The notes under the pieces were generated by a model, which saw only the letters and a list, made by a program, of their open reading frames with translations, searched no databases and was not told the origin of the DNA. The position numbers and the translations under genes are program-made. A stretch of 64,000 nt of DNA from Oceaniglobus trochenteri (GTDB taxonomy: Bacteria; Pseudomonadota; Alphaproteobacteria; Rhodobacterales; Rhodobacteraceae): positions 124,001-188,000 of the forward strand of contig NZ_JACNMM010000008.1 of NCBI RefSeq assembly GCF_020529025.1, read 5' to 3'. Positions 23,528 to 49,765 of this stretch are shown one piece after another. Within the stretch, counting starts at the first letter, position 1. Every line of letters starts with the position of its first letter.

Positions 23528-23923
23528 CGGTCAACCTGCCTTCGTCTACTTGCCCGACAACCATGCGGCGGGATTGGTTAAGAGATGGTGAAGGATTTAT
23601 CGAAGCGGCTGCCCTTCGTTCAAGCCTTTGAAATTGCCCGGCAAGATTTCGGGCCGCCTTACCTCGCGACGCGAATCGCCGGCCCTTTCCAGGGGCCGTG
23701 CGGCGCAGGTACCACTGTTTTCACCACAAGCGATTCTCCTTGTGTAGCGCGACATCAGCTTCTGGACGGAATGACATCACCTTCTGGACGAATATCCTGA
23801 ACTGGAGCGTCAGGAATTGGGTGGCGGGCGTGGTTCCTGACGATCAGCCGACGGCGCGGCCAACCGCCCATTTCATTGCTCGATGGCGCTGCTTGTGTCA
23901 GGATTCTTTAAAGGAGTACGCAC
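23528..23923. other. gene-free junction between dprA and the DUF5131 gene
   Basis: This 396-bp gap probably contains the chromosome-prophage junction. Positions 23528-23740 look like the dprA upstream region, with no convincing gene or tRNA. From 23741 a repeat pair that may be the phage end begins. The last ~20 bp hold a strong ribosome site (AAAGGAG) for the DUF5131 gene. Short open frames here have no recognisable product. Confidence 0.5.
23741..23790. repeat. candidate Mu-type prophage right end with two 18-bp sites
   Basis: TGTGTAGCGC is followed by GACATCAGCTTCTGGACG (23751-23768) and GACATCACCTTCTGGACG (23773-23790), identical except for one base and spaced exactly 22 bp. In phage Mu the right end also starts with TG, about 10 bp precede the first transposase site, and R1 and R2 lie 22 bp apart (recalled from memory). 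The position just beyond dprA fits the outer end of this prophage. An IS21-family terminus has a similar layout and is the main alternative. Confidence 0.5.
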
Positions 23924-24766
23924 ATGGGCCAGAATTCAAAGATCGAATGGACAACTCACACGTTCAATCCCTGGTGGGGCTGCACCAAGGTTTCCGAAGC
24001 TTGCAAGCATTGCTACGCCGAAGCTTGGGCAAAAAGGGTTGGGCAAAATGTCTGGGGTCCGAAGCCTGAAAGACGGTTGCTTAGCGACAACCACTGGCGC
24101 CAGCCGTTCAAATGGAACCGCGATGCACAAGGTGCAGCGGAACGGCCAAGGGTCTTTTGTGCCTCGATGGCTGACGTGTTCGAGGACCGCGACGAACTCA
24201 TCCCACACCGCGAGCGGCTGTTCAGGTTGATAGAGGAGACGGCCAATCTGGACTGGCTGCTTCTGACGAAACGCCCGCAGAATGTCCTGCGGCTGTCGCG
24301 CTGGGGGGACGAATGGCCGGACAACGTCTGGCTTGGGACGACCGTCGAGTTGCAATCCAGAGCGGACGAACTACTGCCGTTTCTGGCAGAAACACCCGCG
24401 AAGGTTCGCTTTATATCGGCAGAGCCGCTTCTCGGAGCACTGCAGATCGACCGATGGCTCGATTCGACAATTGATTGGGTCATTACAGGCGGCGAAAGTG
24501 GCCCACATGCGCGGCCTGCTTCACCGCTCTGGTTCCATGGTTTGCTTGCGCAGTGTATGCGAAACGAAGTCGCGTTCCATTTCAAGCAGTGGGGTGACTG
24601 GGCGCCAGGCGATGGGATCAACCTGCCAGCTGCACAGAAGGTGTCTCGTAGGACCGCCGACGATGGTACCGAAATGGTAAGGGTCGGTAAGAAAATTGCC
24701 GGGCGAACGCTTGGCGGCCAAGAATGGGATCAGCTCCCGGCTGCACGGCTTGTCTGCCAAGGATGA
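23924..24766 (+). CDS. DUF5131 (phage Gp37/Gp68) family three-Cys-motif protein
   Basis: The 280-residue protein begins MGQNSKIEWTTHTFNPWWGC. It carries Cys20, Cys27 and Cys30 (CX6CX2C), followed by YAEAWAKR, in the family pattern seen in Gp37/Gp68 proteins. Later conserved-looking stretches are CASMADVFEDRDELIPHRERL, LLTKRPQN, WLGTTVE, RFISAEPLLG and WVITGGESGPHARP. The Cys cluster plus a barrel-like series of beta strands suggests a radical-SAM-like iron-sulfur enzyme, but no reaction is established to my knowledge. It has a strong ribosome site. Lower GC than both neighbours suggests transfer. The partner gene tcmP follows after 40 bp on the same strand. Confidence 0.85.
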   Translation: MGQNSKIEWTTHTFNPWWGCTKVSEACKHCYAEAWAKRVGQNVWGPKPERRLLSDNHWRQPFKWNRDAQGAAERPRVFCASMADVFEDRDELIPHRERLFRLIEETANLDWLLLTKRPQNVLRLSRWGDEWPDNVWLGTTVELQSRADELLPFLAETPAKVRFISAEPLLGALQIDRWLDSTIDWVITGGESGPHARPASPLWFHGLLAQCMRNEVAFHFKQWGDWAPGDGINLPAAQKVSRRTADDGTEMVRVGKKIAGRTLGGQEWDQLPAARLVCQG

Positions 24767-24806
24767 AACTGCCCTACTGGGTCTGATCTTTGGATAGGAT
24801 GCGGGT

Positions 24807-25943
24807 TTGAAAAATCACTATTTCAATCGAGAACAGAGCGAAGCCAAGCACGATATTTTACGCCGATATCTCGTTCCGTTTGCAAACAAGATACTAAGCA
24901 AATGGCATAGCATCGACTACATCGATGGCTTTTCCGGGCCATGGAGGAATGTCGACACGGAGCGGCTCAGCGATACTTCGATCGGAGTGTCGTTGCAAAC
25001 CTTGCACGAGGTCGCCGAAAAACGCGGACACACGAGACAAGATCGCCGCATCCGCTGCATTTTCAACGAAGCTGATCCGGCTTCATACGGCTTGCTCCAA
25101 TCGTTTGTAAAAAGTGCTGATGTAGATTTTCCCCTTATCAAGGTGGTCACCTTCAACGGCAGATTTGCTGAAAACGCCAAGAGCATCCGCTCTGCTGCTG
25201 ATCATACATTTCAACTGCTTTTCGTTGACCCGACAGGCTATTCGGGGTTCCCACCATCGTCGCTTGAGCATTTCAAGGGTCGCTCGAGCGAGGTGATCGT
25301 GAACTTCATGAGGTCGTTTATTGAGCGCTTCGTCGCTAGTGGGCACCGGGATCGAGATCAAAAACTGATCGAACTGCTGGGTCAAAAGCGAGCGCAATAC
25401 CTTTTGGACACCGGCTTGTCGATCGAGACTGTCGAGGGCGAGTACCTACGGATGCTGCGTGGCGATCTCGGTTACAAGTTCTCTGGATACTCGCCGATCC
25501 ACAACCCGGATCGCAACGAAATCCACTTCAATCTTGCCTATGCCACCAACCATTTCGAGGGAATGGAGGTTATGAGAGGAGCGGAGTTCGGGGCGTTGTC
25601 GTCGCATGACCGAAAACGGTTTGAAAAATCCGTCCGAAATGACGGGCCATCGCTGTTTGACGCGTTCAACGACGAAATGGAGATCCGTGGCCCCTATCTA
25701 ACCGCGCGTCAAAATCACCGCGAACAGGCTTCGAAGATACTGCGCGATCTGGTGATCCAGCACCCGAGAGGCATCGCATTCGGTGAGTTCGCTGCGACCG
25801 CTCAGCAATCGCTCTTTCTAAAGCGCGCGGAGCTAGGCGACGTCATTGTGGAACTTGCAAAGCAGCGGGTGATTCAGGCGACTTGGCAGGAGCGTGGCGG
25901 TCAAAAGCCGGTGACTAACGATTTGATCCTTCCTTACGGATAA
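24807..25943 (+). CDS. tcmP: three-Cys-motif partner protein TcmP
   Basis: The 378-residue product reads from a TTG at 24807; no in-frame ATG lies nearby upstream. The N-terminus HYFNREQSEAKHDILRRYL followed by YIDGFSGPW (38-46) matches the TcmP family, named for co-occurrence with the three-Cys protein encoded just upstream. The order YIDGFSGPW, CIFNEADP and LLFVDPTGYSG resembles motif I, the acidic end of strand 2 and motif IV of Rossmann methyltransferases, so a methyltransferase-like fold is possible. The C-terminal ~90 residues look like a winged helix (HPRGIAFGEFAATAQQ). Low GC and rare codons mark it as acquired. Its stop lies 40 bp from the end of the convergent last phage gene. Confidence 0.82.
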   Translation: MKNHYFNREQSEAKHDILRRYLVPFANKILSKWHSIDYIDGFSGPWRNVDTERLSDTSIGVSLQTLHEVAEKRGHTRQDRRIRCIFNEADPASYGLLQSFVKSADVDFPLIKVVTFNGRFAENAKSIRSAADHTFQLLFVDPTGYSGFPPSSLEHFKGRSSEVIVNFMRSFIERFVASGHRDRDQKLIELLGQKRAQYLLDTGLSIETVEGEYLRMLRGDLGYKFSGYSPIHNPDRNEIHFNLAYATNHFEGMEVMRGAEFGALSSHDRKRFEKSVRNDGPSLFDAFNDEMEIRGPYLTARQNHREQASKILRDLVIQHPRGIAFGEFAATAQQSLFLKRAELGDVIVELAKQRVIQATWQERGGQKPVTNDLILPYG

Positions 25944-25983
25944 CTTGAAAATTGGACGAGTGACGAACGTCGCCTTAAGCCGT

Positions 25984-26262
25984 TCACTTCCCCCGTGTCC
26001 TTTCCACCAAAAGCACCGAGTTCCGTTCGATCCGGTCCATGCGGTCGGCGACCTGTTCGACGGAGGCGGCGATGCGTTCCAGGGCGTCGGAGGAGCGGCG
26101 CTCGGCGTCGGTTTCCGGGCGGATCGCCTGTTGGACGATGGTGCTGGCCGAGGCTCTGCTGGCCTTGCCCCTCATGAGGAACGCGGCGACGATGGCGGCG
26201 ACGGACGCCCCCAGAGCCGTGATCTGTTCGGGAGTGATGATCGTCCAGTCAGGCATGGGCAC
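25984..26262 (-). CDS. small membrane-anchored coiled-coil phage protein (holin/spanin-like)
   Basis: The 92-residue protein has one hydrophobic segment (ITALGASVAAIVAAFLM, about residues 14-30) and then a basic, coiled-coil-like tail (SSDALERIAASVEQVADRMDRIERNSVLL). A single N-terminal anchor with a long helix fits several small lysis or virion-tail proteins. Its place as the last late gene suggests a lysis accessory role, but no family is recognised. It overlaps the upstream membrane protein gene by 14 bp. It is convergent with tcmP, 40 bp away. Confidence 0.6.
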   Translation of the reverse strand: MPMPDWTIITPEQITALGASVAAIVAAFLMRGKASRASASTIVQQAIRPETDAERRSSDALERIAASVEQVADRMDRIERNSVLLVERTRGK

Positions 26263-26653
26263 TTTTGCTTGAGATGTTGATAAGGCAATAGGCCGACCAG
26301 AAGGTCAGTACACCGTAGAGACCGGAGGCAAGGCTGAGCCCACTACTGGCGAAGAAGCCGGCCGCCAGGGCCGCAAAGGACCAGACCCCGAACACCGCAC
26401 CCATGGAGCGGATCATCGGCGAGCGCTTCCAGCGGCCGTTGATCACCACGGCCGATAGCTGGCCCAGACCGAACATCGCGAAAACGACTGTCCAGACCGC
26501 TTCCGGGAGGAATGTGAAGCTGTTGTAACTCTCGCCGGTCATCATGAGGCCGGGGAGCGCAAGGGTGACGCCCCTTGCCAGCGTGACGCTTCCCAGAACA
26601 ATTTCCAGAAGCCGTGTGTCCAGTGCCCAAATCCAGCGCAGCAGCGATTTCAT
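26249..26653 (-). CDS. phage membrane protein with about four TM segments
   Basis: This 134-residue hydrophobic protein has segments at about 13-35, 50-70, 83-105 and 108-128 (for example AVWTVVFAMFGLGQLSAVVI and FGVWSFAALAAGFFA). Several short helices in a late phage gene next to a single-TM protein suggest a holin-type role, though the endolysin lies ~26 kb away. No family is recognised. It begins two bases before the stop of the tail protein gene region and overlaps the next small gene. Confidence 0.6.
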   Translation of the reverse strand: MKSLLRWIWALDTRLLEIVLGSVTLARGVTLALPGLMMTGESYNSFTFLPEAVWTVVFAMFGLGQLSAVVINGRWKRSPMIRSMGAVFGVWSFAALAAGFFASSGLSLASGLYGVLTFWSAYCLINISSKSAHA

Positions 26654-46837: not shown

Positions 46838-46861
46838 AAGGCCGGATCACCCCGGCCTTTT
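46838..46861. terminator. stem-loop at the end of the gpF gene
   Basis: AAGGCCGG (46838-46845) pairs with CCGGCCTT (46852-46859). The T-run TTTT lies on the plus-strand side, overlapping the gpF stop codon. On the minus strand, where the genes lie, the stem directly follows the stop but lacks a U-tract, so it may only partly terminate. Confidence 0.4.
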
Positions 46862-48410
46862 ACGTTTTCGGCCTTTTCCATCGCAGCTTTCCGCCACGCC
46901 TCCGGTCGAGCAAGCGCAAGTCAGGTTCACCCTTCTTCGTGGTGGGCTGATAGGCAGTGATTGCCTCCCACCATCTGCGACCGATCTGGAAAACCACGAC
47001 GATTCCAGACACCGGATCGACCCGGATATACCTTCGGTCGATGACCTGGTCTTCGCTGACGCCGTCCACCGGATCAATAGCGCGTGAAACGCCAACCCAG
47101 ATTTCATCCGGATCCATGAGTGTTTCGGCCATCAGCGGCGTCAGGGTGGCCCGGTTGCGCTTGCCGATTTTCCAGTTGCCAGCGCGATCCCGGAACAGAT
47201 CCGCCGAGATCGGGATCCGGTCTCCTGCGATGTCTTCATAGAGAACGGCCCCTTCCAAACTTGCCCCGAATGGGTCGAGGAACGCGCGCACGTAATCCTC
47301 GTCGCTCAATCCCACTTCAAGGGGAGCTGCCTTGTACGGCCGCGCGGCAGAAACGAGATCGGCCAAGGGCTCGGGGGTGTCGATTTCCACGACATGGCGG
47401 GGGTTGGTCAGGCTTTCCCCACCCGCCTCATCAATCAGCCGCGACGGCACCAGGCCACGCTCCCACTGGTTGCCGACCTGATAGTCCCAGCCATAACCGA
47501 TGCCCTTCGGCTTATCCCCCGGCTTCCCGGTGGCCTTGTCGAAGATCGGCTCCATGACAATGTCGGGCGCCCGGTCGGGGCCGTCCTTGCCAAGGCGCCG
47601 AAGATCGCCGCGCGAAAGCGTTCTGACACCACAGCTGCACAACCAGTCGTTCGGGGGGAAATGTGTATCCCACCACGGATCGTCGTGCATCAGGATCAAC
47701 TTGTCCCAGGCTAGATGGTGTGGGCGGGGATTGCGCGGCGTACCGGCGTCTCCATGGCGGTACTGCCAATACGGGCGTCCCTTTACCACATCCGGATCGC
47801 GCATTTGATGAAGGCGCCCGGCCATGAAGCTGGTGCGGATGTTGGTTGCGAAGATCGTCCTTATCCGCCATTCGCGCCCGCCGTTGTAAGACCAGCCGTG
47901 CCTCTCGACGATGGCGTCGAAATCTCTTGCAAACTGCTTTTCGTCCCAAGTGTCGACGGCTCGGGCGACGGCGTTCTGGAAGTCCTCGACCAGAGCAATG
48001 TCGGTTGCGCCGGCAACGACAAACTTTCGGTCATGGTCGCCTTTCAGCGTGTCGGTCCAGCTCTTGCTGGGCGCAGTGCGCTTCTGACGCATGAAATCGA
48101 TCTGTTCCAGAAATGGTTGGCTGGAGACCTCGCTTGCAAACGCCGGCCCGTCGATGTCCAGAAACACGGCCTCGCGCCCGTGCCATGCCGCAAGCTCCAG
48201 GGCTTGGCCGATCACTCGGGCCTGGGCGTCCGGCGCCCATCGCGCCGCCAATTCCACGAGGTTGCGCATGGCCTGCATCGGATCGCTTTCGGCGACAGCC
48301 AGTCGAACGGCCCTTAGCCGCCGTTCGAAAAGCGGGCGGCTCTCGGCCAGCAGCTGCTCGGTGATCCTTGCAACCGGCCCGTTCTCATCGGCGAAACAGA
48401 CGTGATTCAA
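46860..48410 (-). CDS. Mu gpF-like head morphogenesis protein with C-terminal PBECR2-type nuclease-like domain
   Basis: The 516-residue protein has an N-terminal minor-head part. Family signatures appear in the middle: RIRTIFATNIRTSFMAGRLH, RPYWQYRHGDAGTPRNPRPH, and the Cys-containing FPPNDWLCSCGVRTLSRGDL. The C-terminal ~150 residues (GNWKIGKRNRATLTPLMAET, LMDPDEIWVGVSRAID, YIRVDPVSGIVVVFQIG) look like PBECR2 domains, a barnase/EndoU/colicin-type RNase-like fold attached to phage head proteins. It may be injected with the DNA. It follows the portal gene with an ATGA overlap. Confidence 0.84.
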   Translation of the reverse strand: MNHVCFADENGPVARITEQLLAESRPLFERRLRAVRLAVAESDPMQAMRNLVELAARWAPDAQARVIGQALELAAWHGREAVFLDIDGPAFASEVSSQPFLEQIDFMRQKRTAPSKSWTDTLKGDHDRKFVVAGATDIALVEDFQNAVARAVDTWDEKQFARDFDAIVERHGWSYNGGREWRIRTIFATNIRTSFMAGRLHQMRDPDVVKGRPYWQYRHGDAGTPRNPRPHHLAWDKLILMHDDPWWDTHFPPNDWLCSCGVRTLSRGDLRRLGKDGPDRAPDIVMEPIFDKATGKPGDKPKGIGYGWDYQVGNQWERGLVPSRLIDEAGGESLTNPRHVVEIDTPEPLADLVSAARPYKAAPLEVGLSDEDYVRAFLDPFGASLEGAVLYEDIAGDRIPISADLFRDRAGNWKIGKRNRATLTPLMAETLMDPDEIWVGVSRAIDPVDGVSEDQVIDRRYIRVDPVSGIVVVFQIGRRWWEAITAYQPTTKKGEPDLRLLDRRRGGKLRWKRPKT

Positions 48411-49765
48411 GACTTTTTTTTGAGCGGGTCTTGGTCCAATGCGAACCTCGTGGTTTGCTCTGGCGCCTGGTCCGGCTGCCGGGCCGCGCCGATGAGGGCG
48501 CGGTTCGTCACCAGTCGATCGATGGCCTCGTCGGAAAGCCCGTCGGTCAGGTCGAAACTTGTGATGTATTCACGGGCATCGTCGTCGGCTTCAATCCGGG
48601 CGGCGGTCGCAACGATCTGCATCAGAGCCCTGTCGGAGGCGATGGCAGCATTGGCTTTGGCCTCGCGGCTCTTGGCGTTCTCGGTCTCATTTTGGGCGCG
48701 GGTGCGCCAGACCTTAGGGATTCCGGCACCAGGGACATTGTATTCGACGATCCAGGTCAGCAGCTGTTCACGCAGGCTGTCCGACAACAGATCGCCGTCG
48801 CTGTCCACAAGGTTGGCCAGCATGTCGGCATGTGTTTCCGAGGCCGCCCGGGAACCGTTGCTGCCGATATCCGTGGTCAGGGTCTCACCGTTCACGCAGA
48901 TCGAGATCTGTTTGTCCCAGTAAGCGAGGAAATCCTGGTATGTCACGCTGCCCGATCGCGCCGCTTCCAGAAAATCCAGATCAGTGCCGATCGGTACGAC
49001 GATCGACGATGATGTTCGGATCTGATCGAGCGTGTTGAGCATCCGGCGTTGTTCGTCCGTGCCCTGACCGTAGGGTGTTTTTGCGACAGCGGTTGGTCCG
49101 GCGTATTTCTCTAGGAAGTGCAGCCAGAAGGCGACCCCTTCGCGCTTGAAGAAGACGGGCCAGAACAGCCGTGTGCCCAATCCCAGGCCAAAAGGGTTGT
49201 TGCCCTTCACACCGTAGCGATGAACGATGAACTTGCGGTCCGGAAGTTCCTCGCCAGCCAACAGGTTGTTAAGCGTCAGAAGACGCGGTCGCCAGTCCAA
49301 CCCAAAGGTGAAACGGCGCTGATCGTGGGACACGACATCTACTGGCCTGATCCGCCCGCCATCGCGACCCCAAATGATCTCGCTGATTGCATAGCCCTTC
49401 AACGTCGCGTCCAGAAGATCTTCGCAGATGCGATCGAAGGGAAGTGCTTCCAAGCACTCGCGAACGATCTCGGCGGCCTCGGCATCGATATCGGCGTCCG
49501 ATGCCGGAACGACTTCCCACTCCCGCGCGACCAGCGTCTTCTTGCGCTTCTGCAGCATGGCGAAGGCGTGGGTGTCGCGCTCGATTTCGTCGTAGAGCTT
49601 CAGCCCTTTGCCGCCGCCCCGCTGGATCAGCGTATCGTCCTGATGCTGCAGCACCGTGCCGAAGAAGGGGATCGTGATATCGTTGCGTGCGTGCGCGATC
49701 AGCACGTCGGATCCCTTCGGCAGGTTCTTGCGGCCTTTCTTCACCTTTTCGGCCTTGATCTTCAT
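48407..49765 (-). CDS. portal protein (DUF935, Mu gp29-like)
   Basis: The 452-residue protein matches DUF935 portal proteins of Mu-like phages: IERDTHAFAMLQKRKKTLVA, EWEVVPAS, GYAISEIIWGRDGGRIRPVD, RKFIVHRYG, LGLGTRLFWPVFFKREGVAF. It forms the dodecameric portal ring through which DNA is packaged. It overlaps the terminase large subunit upstream and gpF downstream by 4 bp each. Length and order are normal. Confidence 0.92.
   Translation of the reverse strand: MKIKAEKVKKGRKNLPKGSDVLIAHARNDITIPFFGTVLQHQDDTLIQRGGGKGLKLYDEIERDTHAFAMLQKRKKTLVAREWEVVPASDADIDAEAAEIVRECLEALPFDRICEDLLDATLKGYAISEIIWGRDGGRIRPVDVVSHDQRRFTFGLDWRPRLLTLNNLLAGEELPDRKFIVHRYGVKGNNPFGLGLGTRLFWPVFFKREGVAFWLHFLEKYAGPTAVAKTPYGQGTDEQRRMLNTLDQIRTSSSIVVPIGTDLDFLEAARSGSVTYQDFLAYWDKQISICVNGETLTTDIGSNGSRAASETHADMLANLVDSDGDLLSDSLREQLLTWIVEYNVPGAGIPKVWRTRAQNETENAKSREAKANAAIASDRALMQIVATAARIEADDDAREYITSFDLTDGLSDEAIDRLVTNRALIGAARQPDQAPEQTTRFALDQDPLKKKS

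What the first reader, a model, noticed from the sequence alone, without database searches (positions are those of the whole stretch)
23924..25943. DUF5131-TcmP pair as cargo at the prophage end
A three-Cys-motif protein (CX6CX2C) and its partner TcmP form a plus-strand pair with lower GC than the host genes and the phage, placed between dprA and the last late gene. Mu-like phages often carry non-essential genes at this right end. The first protein looks like a radical-SAM-type enzyme; the second shows Rossmann methyltransferase-like motifs (YIDGFSGPW, NEADP, VDPTGYSG) and a winged-helix-like end. A two-protein modification or defence system is possible. The function is, to my knowledge, not established.
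Basis: partly seen in the sequence, partly recalled or inferred. Interest (0 to 1): 0.75.

Follow-up and report, generated by a model that had tools for sequence, protein, structure and literature searches.

The report
Two-enzyme defence-candidate cassette in Mu-like prophage
A small two-gene cassette sits just inside the end of a transposing virus embedded in this bacterium's chromosome; its proteins look like two cooperating SAM-using enzymes that probably modify DNA or RNA in the contest between phages and bacteria, and the same kind of pair is already on a public list of phage-defence candidates.

Summary
DUF5131 (23924-24766) and TcmP (24807-25943) are intact plus-strand genes with lower GC than the host and phage genes measured. 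They lie inside a Mu-like prophage, between its right end (23743) and its last late gene. A sister phage (MuA 61% identical) has no DUF5131 in its record, and its right-end sequence starts about 30 bp after the last late gene, so the pair is inserted cargo. PADLOC-DB already lists this pair type (PDC-M30, phage-defence candidate).

New here: (1) the TcmP model matches the rRNA adenine-N6 methyltransferase RlmJ best (Z 14.8, tied with others), and RlmJ's essential Lys and Asp are invariant in TcmP; (2) the DUF5131 model is a radical-SAM-type barrel, nearest spore photoproduct lyase (Z 13.4); (3) TcmP sits beside DUF5131 in 24 of 24 genomes that have it, and once is fused to it; (4) DUF5131s up to 81% identical carry TcmPs under 25% identical, so partners are swapped; (5) 4 of 12 close relatives checked adjoin Gabija or restriction-modification-type genes.

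Best reading: a nucleic-acid-modifying pair with an exchangeable target subunit, used in phage-host conflict. Chemistry, target and protection are not shown.

The parts
23924..24766 (+). DUF5131 protein, 280 aa: radical-SAM-type barrel with CX6CX2C (C20, C27, C30)
   Evidence: PF07505 268.6 bits; phrog_2045 316 bits; PDC-M41B 7.2e-56 and PDC-M30B 7.3e-55; AF2 pLDDT 93.3; nearest solved fold spore photoproduct lyase, Z 13.4, 3.4 A over 204 residues
24807..25943 (+). TcmP, 378 aa (TTG start): RlmJ-like methyltransferase domain with K14 and D141, plus a winged-helix-like C-terminus
   Evidence: TIGR04474 113.9 bits; PDC-M30A 3.1e-12; AF2 pLDDT 90.5; RlmJ Z 14.8; profile-profile match to RlmJ E 5.8e-8
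23743..23816 (.). right end of the Mu-like prophage with two CATCA(G/C)CTTCTGGAC repeats at 23753-23767 and 23775-23789 (transposase-site-like, inferred)
   Evidence: 80.5% match over 77 columns to L261 6721-6795, right end of a sister phage; terminal pattern once in the window, 0 in 100 shuffles; inverted match to the left end; positions
23808..23842 (.). CGTCAGGAA...TTCCTGACG hairpin, terminator-like by eye; in the sister phage a like hairpin lies directly after the last late gene
   Evidence: sequences side by side; positions
23843..25983 (.). cargo segment of about 2.1 kb absent from the sister phage; both pair genes run against the late operon
   Evidence: no DUF5131 in the sister phage record
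25984..26262 (-). last late gene of the phage (92 aa, function unknown)
   Evidence: homologue L261 6407-6691, 56% over 81 residues; the gene before it, 26249-26653, is 80% identical in L261
59256..61520 (-). Mu-type transposase A (prophage context)
   Evidence: PF09299 and rve; 61% and 63% identical in two sister phages
48407..49765 (-). Mu-type portal protein (prophage context)
   Evidence: PF06074 330.9 bits

Best explanation
The pair is a mobile two-gene cassette of the PADLOC candidate type PDC-M30, carried as cargo between the last late gene and the right end of a Mu-like prophage. SHOWN BY COMPUTATION: cargo position; close pairing of TcmP with DUF5131; one natural fusion; RlmJ homology of TcmP with the essential Lys and Asp kept; radical-SAM-type fold of DUF5131; exchange of TcmP partners around a conserved DUF5131. 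INFERRED: the two proteins form one complex on a nucleic acid. TcmP binds SAM, chooses the target and, with its Lys-Asp pair, probably methylates an exocyclic amine such as adenine N6. DUF5131 uses an iron-sulphur cluster and SAM to do radical chemistry at the same site. Because the genes run against the late operon, they are probably expressed from the prophage, so the lysogen would gain, most likely against other phages. TcmP would be the part that diversifies in the arms race.
For: Cargo: sister phage empty at the site; each phage end matched by another phage. Pairing: all 28 TcmP genes over the cut-off, in 24 of 398 genomes, have a DUF5131 24-1463 bp away; order varies (66 DUF-TcmP, 18 TcmP-DUF, 18 convergent, 1 divergent of 103 pairs, duplicates included); fusion in L165. 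TcmP: K14 in 75 of 75, D141 in 76 of 76 and E/D88 in 77 of 77 readable rows of 77; K18A and D164A abolish RlmJ activity (PMC3814359, passages). DUF5131; CX6CX2C in 153 of 160. Partner swapping. Defence context: complete Gabija next to L101; a ThsA-like gene and a type I specificity gene before L104; type I methyltransferase and specificity genes before L106; a type II/III-like methyltransferase after L102.
Against: No complex was predicted. TcmP lacks the PPY of RlmJ's DPPY (DPTGY here; the second position is Q in 39 of 76), and this subclass has lost the second Gly of motif I (GPW), so methyl transfer is not assured. A TcmP profile found no RlmJ chain in the PDB sequences at E 0.1 or better, and a DUF5131 profile found no chain at all, so the RlmJ link rests on profile-profile and fold comparison and the radical-SAM link on fold and one sub-cut-off family match. 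Eight of 12 loci showed no defence match among the proteins scanned. Many DUF5131 genes have no TcmP in view (16 of 40 genomes; 75 of 80 viral loci). The empty-site comparison rests on one sister phage.
Confidence: 0.5

Rival explanations
1. Defence system in which TcmP is a sensor or adaptor, not a methylase: it binds a phage molecule and switches on DUF5131, which damages a cell or phage component by radical chemistry (abortive infection).
For: TcmP classes diverge strongly while DUF5131 is conserved, as a sensor would; motif IV is altered to DP or DQ without PPY; defence neighbours.
Against: K14 and D141 invariant in all readable rows argues for kept catalysis or SAM binding; no toxicity data.
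Confidence: 0.2
2. Phage-serving DNA modification (anti-restriction), like Mu's mom gene, which I recall lies at the same end of Mu.
For: Right-end position inside the phage; another Mu-like phage (L260) carries a related pair (DUF5131 75%, TcmP 57%); RlmJ's active site resembles DNA m6A enzymes (PMC3814359, abstract).
Against: Pair runs against the late operon, so it would not be made together with the virion (inference); in L260 it lies elsewhere; of the DUF5131 loci fetched, 5 of 80 viral against 41 of 80 genome loci are paired; some pairs sit beside Gabija and type I RM genes.
Confidence: 0.12
3. DNA-repair pair: DUF5131 reverses or processes base lesions, as spore photoproduct lyase does, with TcmP as DNA-binding helper.
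For: Closest fold is spore photoproduct lyase; a Gp37Gp68 gene (labelled ssDNA-annealing protein) of Erythrobacter phage R6L sits by exonuclease, ERF and SSB genes (PMC5463345, passage); Rv2735c is co-transcribed with recA and recX (PMC3062782, passages) and clusters with Rv2734, recX and recA under mitomycin C (PMC5057432, passage). BCG_2748c has a TcmP domain (PMC7387457, passage); that it is Rv2735c is recalled from gene numbering, not tested.
Against: Prophage cargo and some defence-gene neighbourhoods; partner exchange is not expected of a repair enzyme; no recA-like neighbour here.
Confidence: 0.13
4. Passenger genes with no selected role in the phage, recently picked up and on the way to loss.
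For: Low GC; absent from the sister phage.
Against: Both ORFs intact with conserved active-site residues; a related pair is held by a second Mu-like phage.
Confidence: 0.05

Closest known systems
PDC-M30 and PDC-M41 (PADLOC-DB phage-defence candidates)
   Same: Both proteins match A and B models of PDC-M30; two adjacent genes.
   Different: The TcmP match is modest (3e-12), and to PDC-M41A only 0.05. Candidate status only; I saw no experimental test in the searches run (listings and some passages).
RlmJ, 23S rRNA adenine-N6 methyltransferase
   Same: Best structural rows for TcmP (Z 14.8, 3.3-3.6 A, 213-217 residues); essential Lys and Asp kept.
   Different: DPPY replaced; no second motif-I Gly in this subclass; extra C-terminal winged-helix-like part; found with DUF5131. 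RlmJ rows tie in Z with another methyltransferase (1im8, 14.4); no PDB match by ordinary profile search.
Spore photoproduct lyase (radical SAM)
   Same: Best structural rows for DUF5131 (Z 13.2-13.4) stand above the next (SuiB 10.9, viperin-like 10.8).
   Different: CX6CX2C instead of the CX3CX2C of the lyase (recalled); 10-11% sequence identity; no sequence match to the PDB by profile.
Radical SAM mobile pair proteins A and B (TIGR04471, TIGR04470)
   Same: DUF5131 matches TIGR04471 at 2e-9; a mobile two-gene set by its name.
   Different: Far below the family cut-off (37 against 355 bits); by name the partner there is a second radical SAM protein, here it is TcmP.
Mom of phage Mu (recalled)
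   Same: Modification gene near the right end of a Mu-type phage.
   Different: Unrelated proteins; here the genes run against the late operon.

Membership tests
PDC-M30 (PADLOC candidate) | A-type (TcmP) and B-type (DUF5131) proteins as neighbours | tested here: met
   PDC-M30A 3.1e-12, PDC-M30B 7.3e-55, 40 bp apart; PADLOC's own thresholds and system rules were not run
PDC-M30 (PADLOC candidate) | protects against phage | not testable with these tools
   Only a correlation seen in print: 32 of 100 P. aeruginosa strains, 68.8% resistant (PMC10855318, section 6)
TcmP subfamily TIGR04474 | score over curated cut-off | tested here: met
   113.9 against 53 bits
DUF5131 PF07505 | score over curated cut-off | tested here: met
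   268.6 against 28.9 bits
Radical SAM superfamily | radical-SAM-type barrel fold | tested here: met
   the 33 best rows (Z 8.8-13.4) are enzymes that I know as radical SAM (by name, recalled); Foldseek alone gave no E of 0.001 or less
Radical SAM superfamily | three Cys binding a 4Fe-4S cluster with SAM cleavage | not testable with these tools
   CX6CX2C in 153 of 160; spacing is not the common CX3CX2C; no cluster data
Spore photoproduct lyase | specific thymine-dimer repair and lyase sequence signature | tested here: inconclusive
   fold resemblance only, 10-11% identity; activity not testable
RlmJ family | catalytic Lys and Asp | tested here: met
   K14 and D141 aligned to RlmJ Lys and Asp, invariant in readable rows; the three RlmJ proteins used match solved RlmJ at 6e-57 or better in two and 2e-52 in the third
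RlmJ family | DPPY-type motif IV | tested here: not met
   DPTGY in the window; P in 37 and Q in 39 of 76 at the second position. Filed as a distant homologue, not a member
Mu-like prophage | Mu A/B-type transposition proteins, Mu portal, matching inverted ends | tested here: met
Mu-like prophage | 5-bp target duplication (as recalled for Mu) | tested here: not met
   flanks CCTTG and CGATT differ; CGATT recurs 7 bp from the right end. Each end is otherwise fixed by another phage, so the element is still called Mu-like on its proteins and ends

The most novel reading that the evidence does not exclude
A two-step adenine hypermodification machine with interchangeable specificity: TcmP puts a methyl group on adenine N6 (RlmJ-type Lys-Asp chemistry), and DUF5131 abstracts hydrogen from that methyl or a neighbouring carbon by radical SAM chemistry to build a larger group. 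This would be a chemically new route to a Mom-like base, used to mark or disable phage nucleic acid, with TcmP swapped between systems to change the target.
Probability: 0.15. Interest if true: 0.88.

Novelty: new member of a known kind. Interest (0 to 1): 0.55.

Why it matters
The pair is widespread (TcmP over cut-off in 24 of 398 genomes sampled from the phylum) and listed as a defence candidate, yet I saw no mechanism for it in the papers searched. Naming RlmJ-type catalytic residues and a spore-photoproduct-lyase-like radical fold gives point mutants to test, and the shuffled partners suggest that TcmP sets the target. If a radical SAM enzyme and a methyltransferase jointly modify nucleic acid in phage defence, that would be an unfamiliar chemistry for immunity.

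Tried and rejected
Host core genes at dprA: rejected. DNA similarity to 4 same-genus genomes stops between 23553 and 23598, and their dprA regions hold neither gene. Pair outside the prophage: rejected by the right-end match. The left end first looked weak (21 of 30 inverted matches against 20 for the next candidate); it was then confirmed by a 26 of 26 identical terminus in another phage.

RNA element in the region: no Rfam match at gathering scores. Promoter and terminator scans were at chance level. No convincing PDB relative of either protein by single sequence (best E 0.94 and 0.45); a DUF5131 profile found none at E 0.1; a TcmP profile found only the C-terminus of MCM4 (E 0.003), not RlmJ. 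PHROG scan of 149 neighbours of lone viral DUF5131 genes: among the 25 families listed of 110, none in more than 3 members; DNA primase, helicase, DNA methyltransferase, integrase and HNH are among those seen.

Defence enrichment of neighbours, paired against lone DUF5131: 277 against 93 PADLOC models hit, among 132 and 136 proteins. The tool does not tell how many proteins had a hit and one protein can hit dozens of models, so I claim no enrichment. Rows dropped there: proteins under 100 aa, over 1300 aa or cut by a locus end; from the lone set also the three rows of L174 (it proved paired) and one of L178. In the 25 Pfam families listed (of 121) for the 132 paired neighbours, none had more than 2 members and several were housekeeping: against a pure defence-island reading. 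Loci L100-L259 are the best 80 of each list by likeness to this DUF5131, so 41 of 80 and 5 of 80 are not population frequencies. Neighbour genes were called by a simple script, so some may be wrong-frame ORFs.

Defence neighbours one by one: 20 proteins of 12 of the 16 best genome loci (L100-L115; not L100, L105, L111, L113) were scanned. Ten of the 12 fall in the window's 28-row branch of the tree (L104 there as its duplicate L012); L107 and L115 are not in the tree.

Limits: no complex was predicted (single proteins only were folded); the winged helix was not folded or searched alone; Rv2734 as DUF5131 was not tested; no empty host site could be shown because gene order beside dprA differs between this genome and the one relative read there. 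In the family sample two TcmP pieces at contig starts (L015, L023) and one sub-cut-off piece (L017) have no DUF5131 in view. The 103 pairs include duplicates (the same pair fetched through both families); the 77 are de-duplicated on DUF5131.

Full report
WHAT IS THERE. Family scores are far over cut-off (PF07505 268.6 against 28.9 bits; TIGR04474 113.9 against 53 bits). GC3 is 0.63 and 0.61, against 0.73-0.85 in seven phage genes and 0.80-0.84 in dprA and topA.

WHERE IT SITS. The neighbouring element is a Mu-like prophage: MuA, a MuB-like ATPase and a Mu portal, all on the minus strand. DNA similarity to four same-genus genomes runs through dprA and stops between 23553 and 23598. The right end of the phage is at 23743. 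This rests on an inverted match to the left end and on a sister phage in viral contigs (L261), whose next-to-last late gene is 80% and last late gene 56% identical in protein and whose following right-end sequence matches window 23742-23816 at 80.5%. The left end is at L033:4456 (66455 on the window scale, beyond the window). There a second sister phage (L275, same record as L262) has a 26 of 26 identical terminus. The prophage is thus about 42.7 kb. No 5-bp target duplication adjoins the ends.

THE PAIR IS INSERTED CARGO. In the sister phage L261 a hairpin like CGTCAGGAA...TTCCTGACG and then the right end follow the last late gene at once; in the window about 2.1 kb with the pair stands between gene and hairpin. 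The sister phage record (45 kb, MuA 61% identical) has no DUF5131 match. The second sister record (44 kb, MuA 63%) has none either, but it is cut near its right end, so it is no second proof. Another Mu-like phage (L260; GemA, Mu portal) carries a related pair (DUF5131 75%, TcmP 57%) between the GemA gene and a lysis-type gene, so the place is not fixed. The pair runs against the late operon; I infer expression from the prophage rather than with virion production.

THE TWO GO TOGETHER. In 398 genomes drawn from the phylum, 24 have TcmP over the cut-off, and all 28 such TcmP genes lie 24-1463 bp from a DUF5131. DUF5131 occurs in 40 of the 398, so 16 lack a TcmP over the cut-off. Among 103 pairs (duplicates included) the order varies: 66 DUF-TcmP, 18 TcmP-DUF, 18 convergent, 1 divergent. 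In a Caldilineales record (L165) one 535-residue ORF holds DUF5131 (9-251, 336 bits) and TcmP (260-516, 129 bits). Among the DUF5131 loci fetched from viral contigs 5 of 80 have a TcmP within 2.5 kb, against 41 of 80 from genomes (both lists are the best 80 by likeness to the window's DUF5131).

STRUCTURE AND ACTIVE SITES. The DUF5131 model (pLDDT 93.3) matches spore photoproduct lyase best (Z 13.2-13.4, 3.4-3.5 A, 204-206 residues), above SuiB (10.9) and viperin-like enzymes (10.8); plain Foldseek gave no match at E 0.001 and a sequence profile found no PDB chain. CX6CX2C is present in 153 of 160 relatives; of the seven exceptions, four ORFs seem to lack or misread the start of the protein (L114, L115, L130, L234), one has one residue more (L232) and two lack a Cys (L162, L169). 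The TcmP model (pLDDT 90.5) matches RlmJ best (Z 14.8, 3.3-3.6 A, 213-217 residues; other methyltransferases follow at 14.4 and lower, so the rows tie). By profile-profile comparison TcmP matches RlmJ at E 5.8e-8 over 107 columns; the three RlmJ proteins used are RlmJ by their match to solved chains. An ordinary profile search of the PDB with TcmP did not find RlmJ. Over 77 non-redundant TcmPs, K14 is kept in 75 of 75, D141 in 76 of 76, E or D at 88 in 77 of 77, D40 in 74 of 75 and S58 in 64 of 76 readable rows. By alignment the RlmJ counterparts are the essential K18 and D164, the ribose-binding E118 and the cofactor-binding S100 (PMC3814359, abstract and passages). Against simple methylase function: DPPY is replaced (DPTGY here; Q instead of P in 39 of 76), and this subclass reads GPW where RlmJ has GxG.

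PARTNER SWAPPING. The same genome has a second pair (C13) whose DUF5131 is 81% identical but whose TcmP is 22%. Over 24 chosen pairs (276 comparisons) the identities of the two proteins are uncorrelated (Spearman 0.05, p 0.41); of 53 comparisons with DUF5131 at 60% or more, 35 have TcmP under 30% and 9 at 40% or more. On a DUF5131 tree of 77 pairs the TcmP class changes 33 times (least possible 9; shuffled mean 43.2, none of 200 shuffles as low, so the classes are partly inherited with DUF5131), and the smallest well-supported branch with the window (7 rows) holds three TcmP classes. So TcmP is repeatedly exchanged around a conserved DUF5131. I read TcmP as the target-setting subunit.

CONFLICT CONTEXT. 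PADLOC-DB holds both proteins as PDC-M30/M41 candidates. For 12 of the 16 best-matching genome loci I scanned 20 neighbours. Four loci have defence-type genes by the pair: complete Gabija (L101, GajA 7.5e-210, GajB 1.3e-177), a ThsA-like gene and a type I specificity gene (L104), type I methyltransferase and specificity genes (L106), a type II/III-like methyltransferase (L102); eight had none among the proteins given. Pooled over 40 paired loci, several neighbours are housekeeping genes. In print: a TcmP gene is listed beside hna in a table of NolR-affected genes of Sinorhizobium meliloti (PMC12445080, passage); PDC-M30 is in 32 of 100 P. aeruginosa strains, 68.8% of them phage-resistant, where resistance also tracks the total number of systems (PMC10855318, section 6); PA14 has two copies (PMC11878078, passage). 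I saw no functional test (searches; listings and the passages cited; open-access library, no preprints).

VERDICT. The most likely function is a SAM-dependent nucleic-acid-modifying pair used in phage-host conflict, with TcmP as exchangeable target subunit and DUF5131 as radical enzyme. Components and association are well supported; chemistry, target and protection are inference. It is a member of an already listed candidate type, not a new kind.

Noticed in passing
G000:C13:648300-649951 (L039): Second DUF5131-TcmP pair in the same genome: DUF5131 81% identical, TcmP of another class (22%).
   Followed up: yes
G000:C3:77091-78140 and G000:C27:253131-253721 (L040, L041): Two further DUF5131 genes, one near an integrase-like ORF (by eye), one short (218-residue open frame).
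   Followed up: partly
L165 9977-11581: Natural DUF5131-TcmP fusion in a Caldilineales record.
   Followed up: yes
L101 9935-15313: Pair with a 76-77% identical DUF5131 stands about 86 bp before a complete Gabija system on the same strand (Salipiger).
   Followed up: partly
L109, L113; G432, G460, G516: Some loci have one DUF5131 and two different TcmP genes.
   Followed up: partly
L033 3141-3866 (beyond the window's right edge): Adenine-methylase-like gene (by eye) near the left end of the prophage; 77% and 75% DNA identity in the two sister phages.
   Followed up: no
window 23731-23742 and L033 4457-4461: No 5-bp target duplication next to the prophage ends; CGATT occurs at the left end and 7 bp away from the right end.
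   Followed up: partly
window 46860-48410 (-): Mu F-like head protein carries a C-terminal PBECR2 nuclease-like domain.
   Followed up: no
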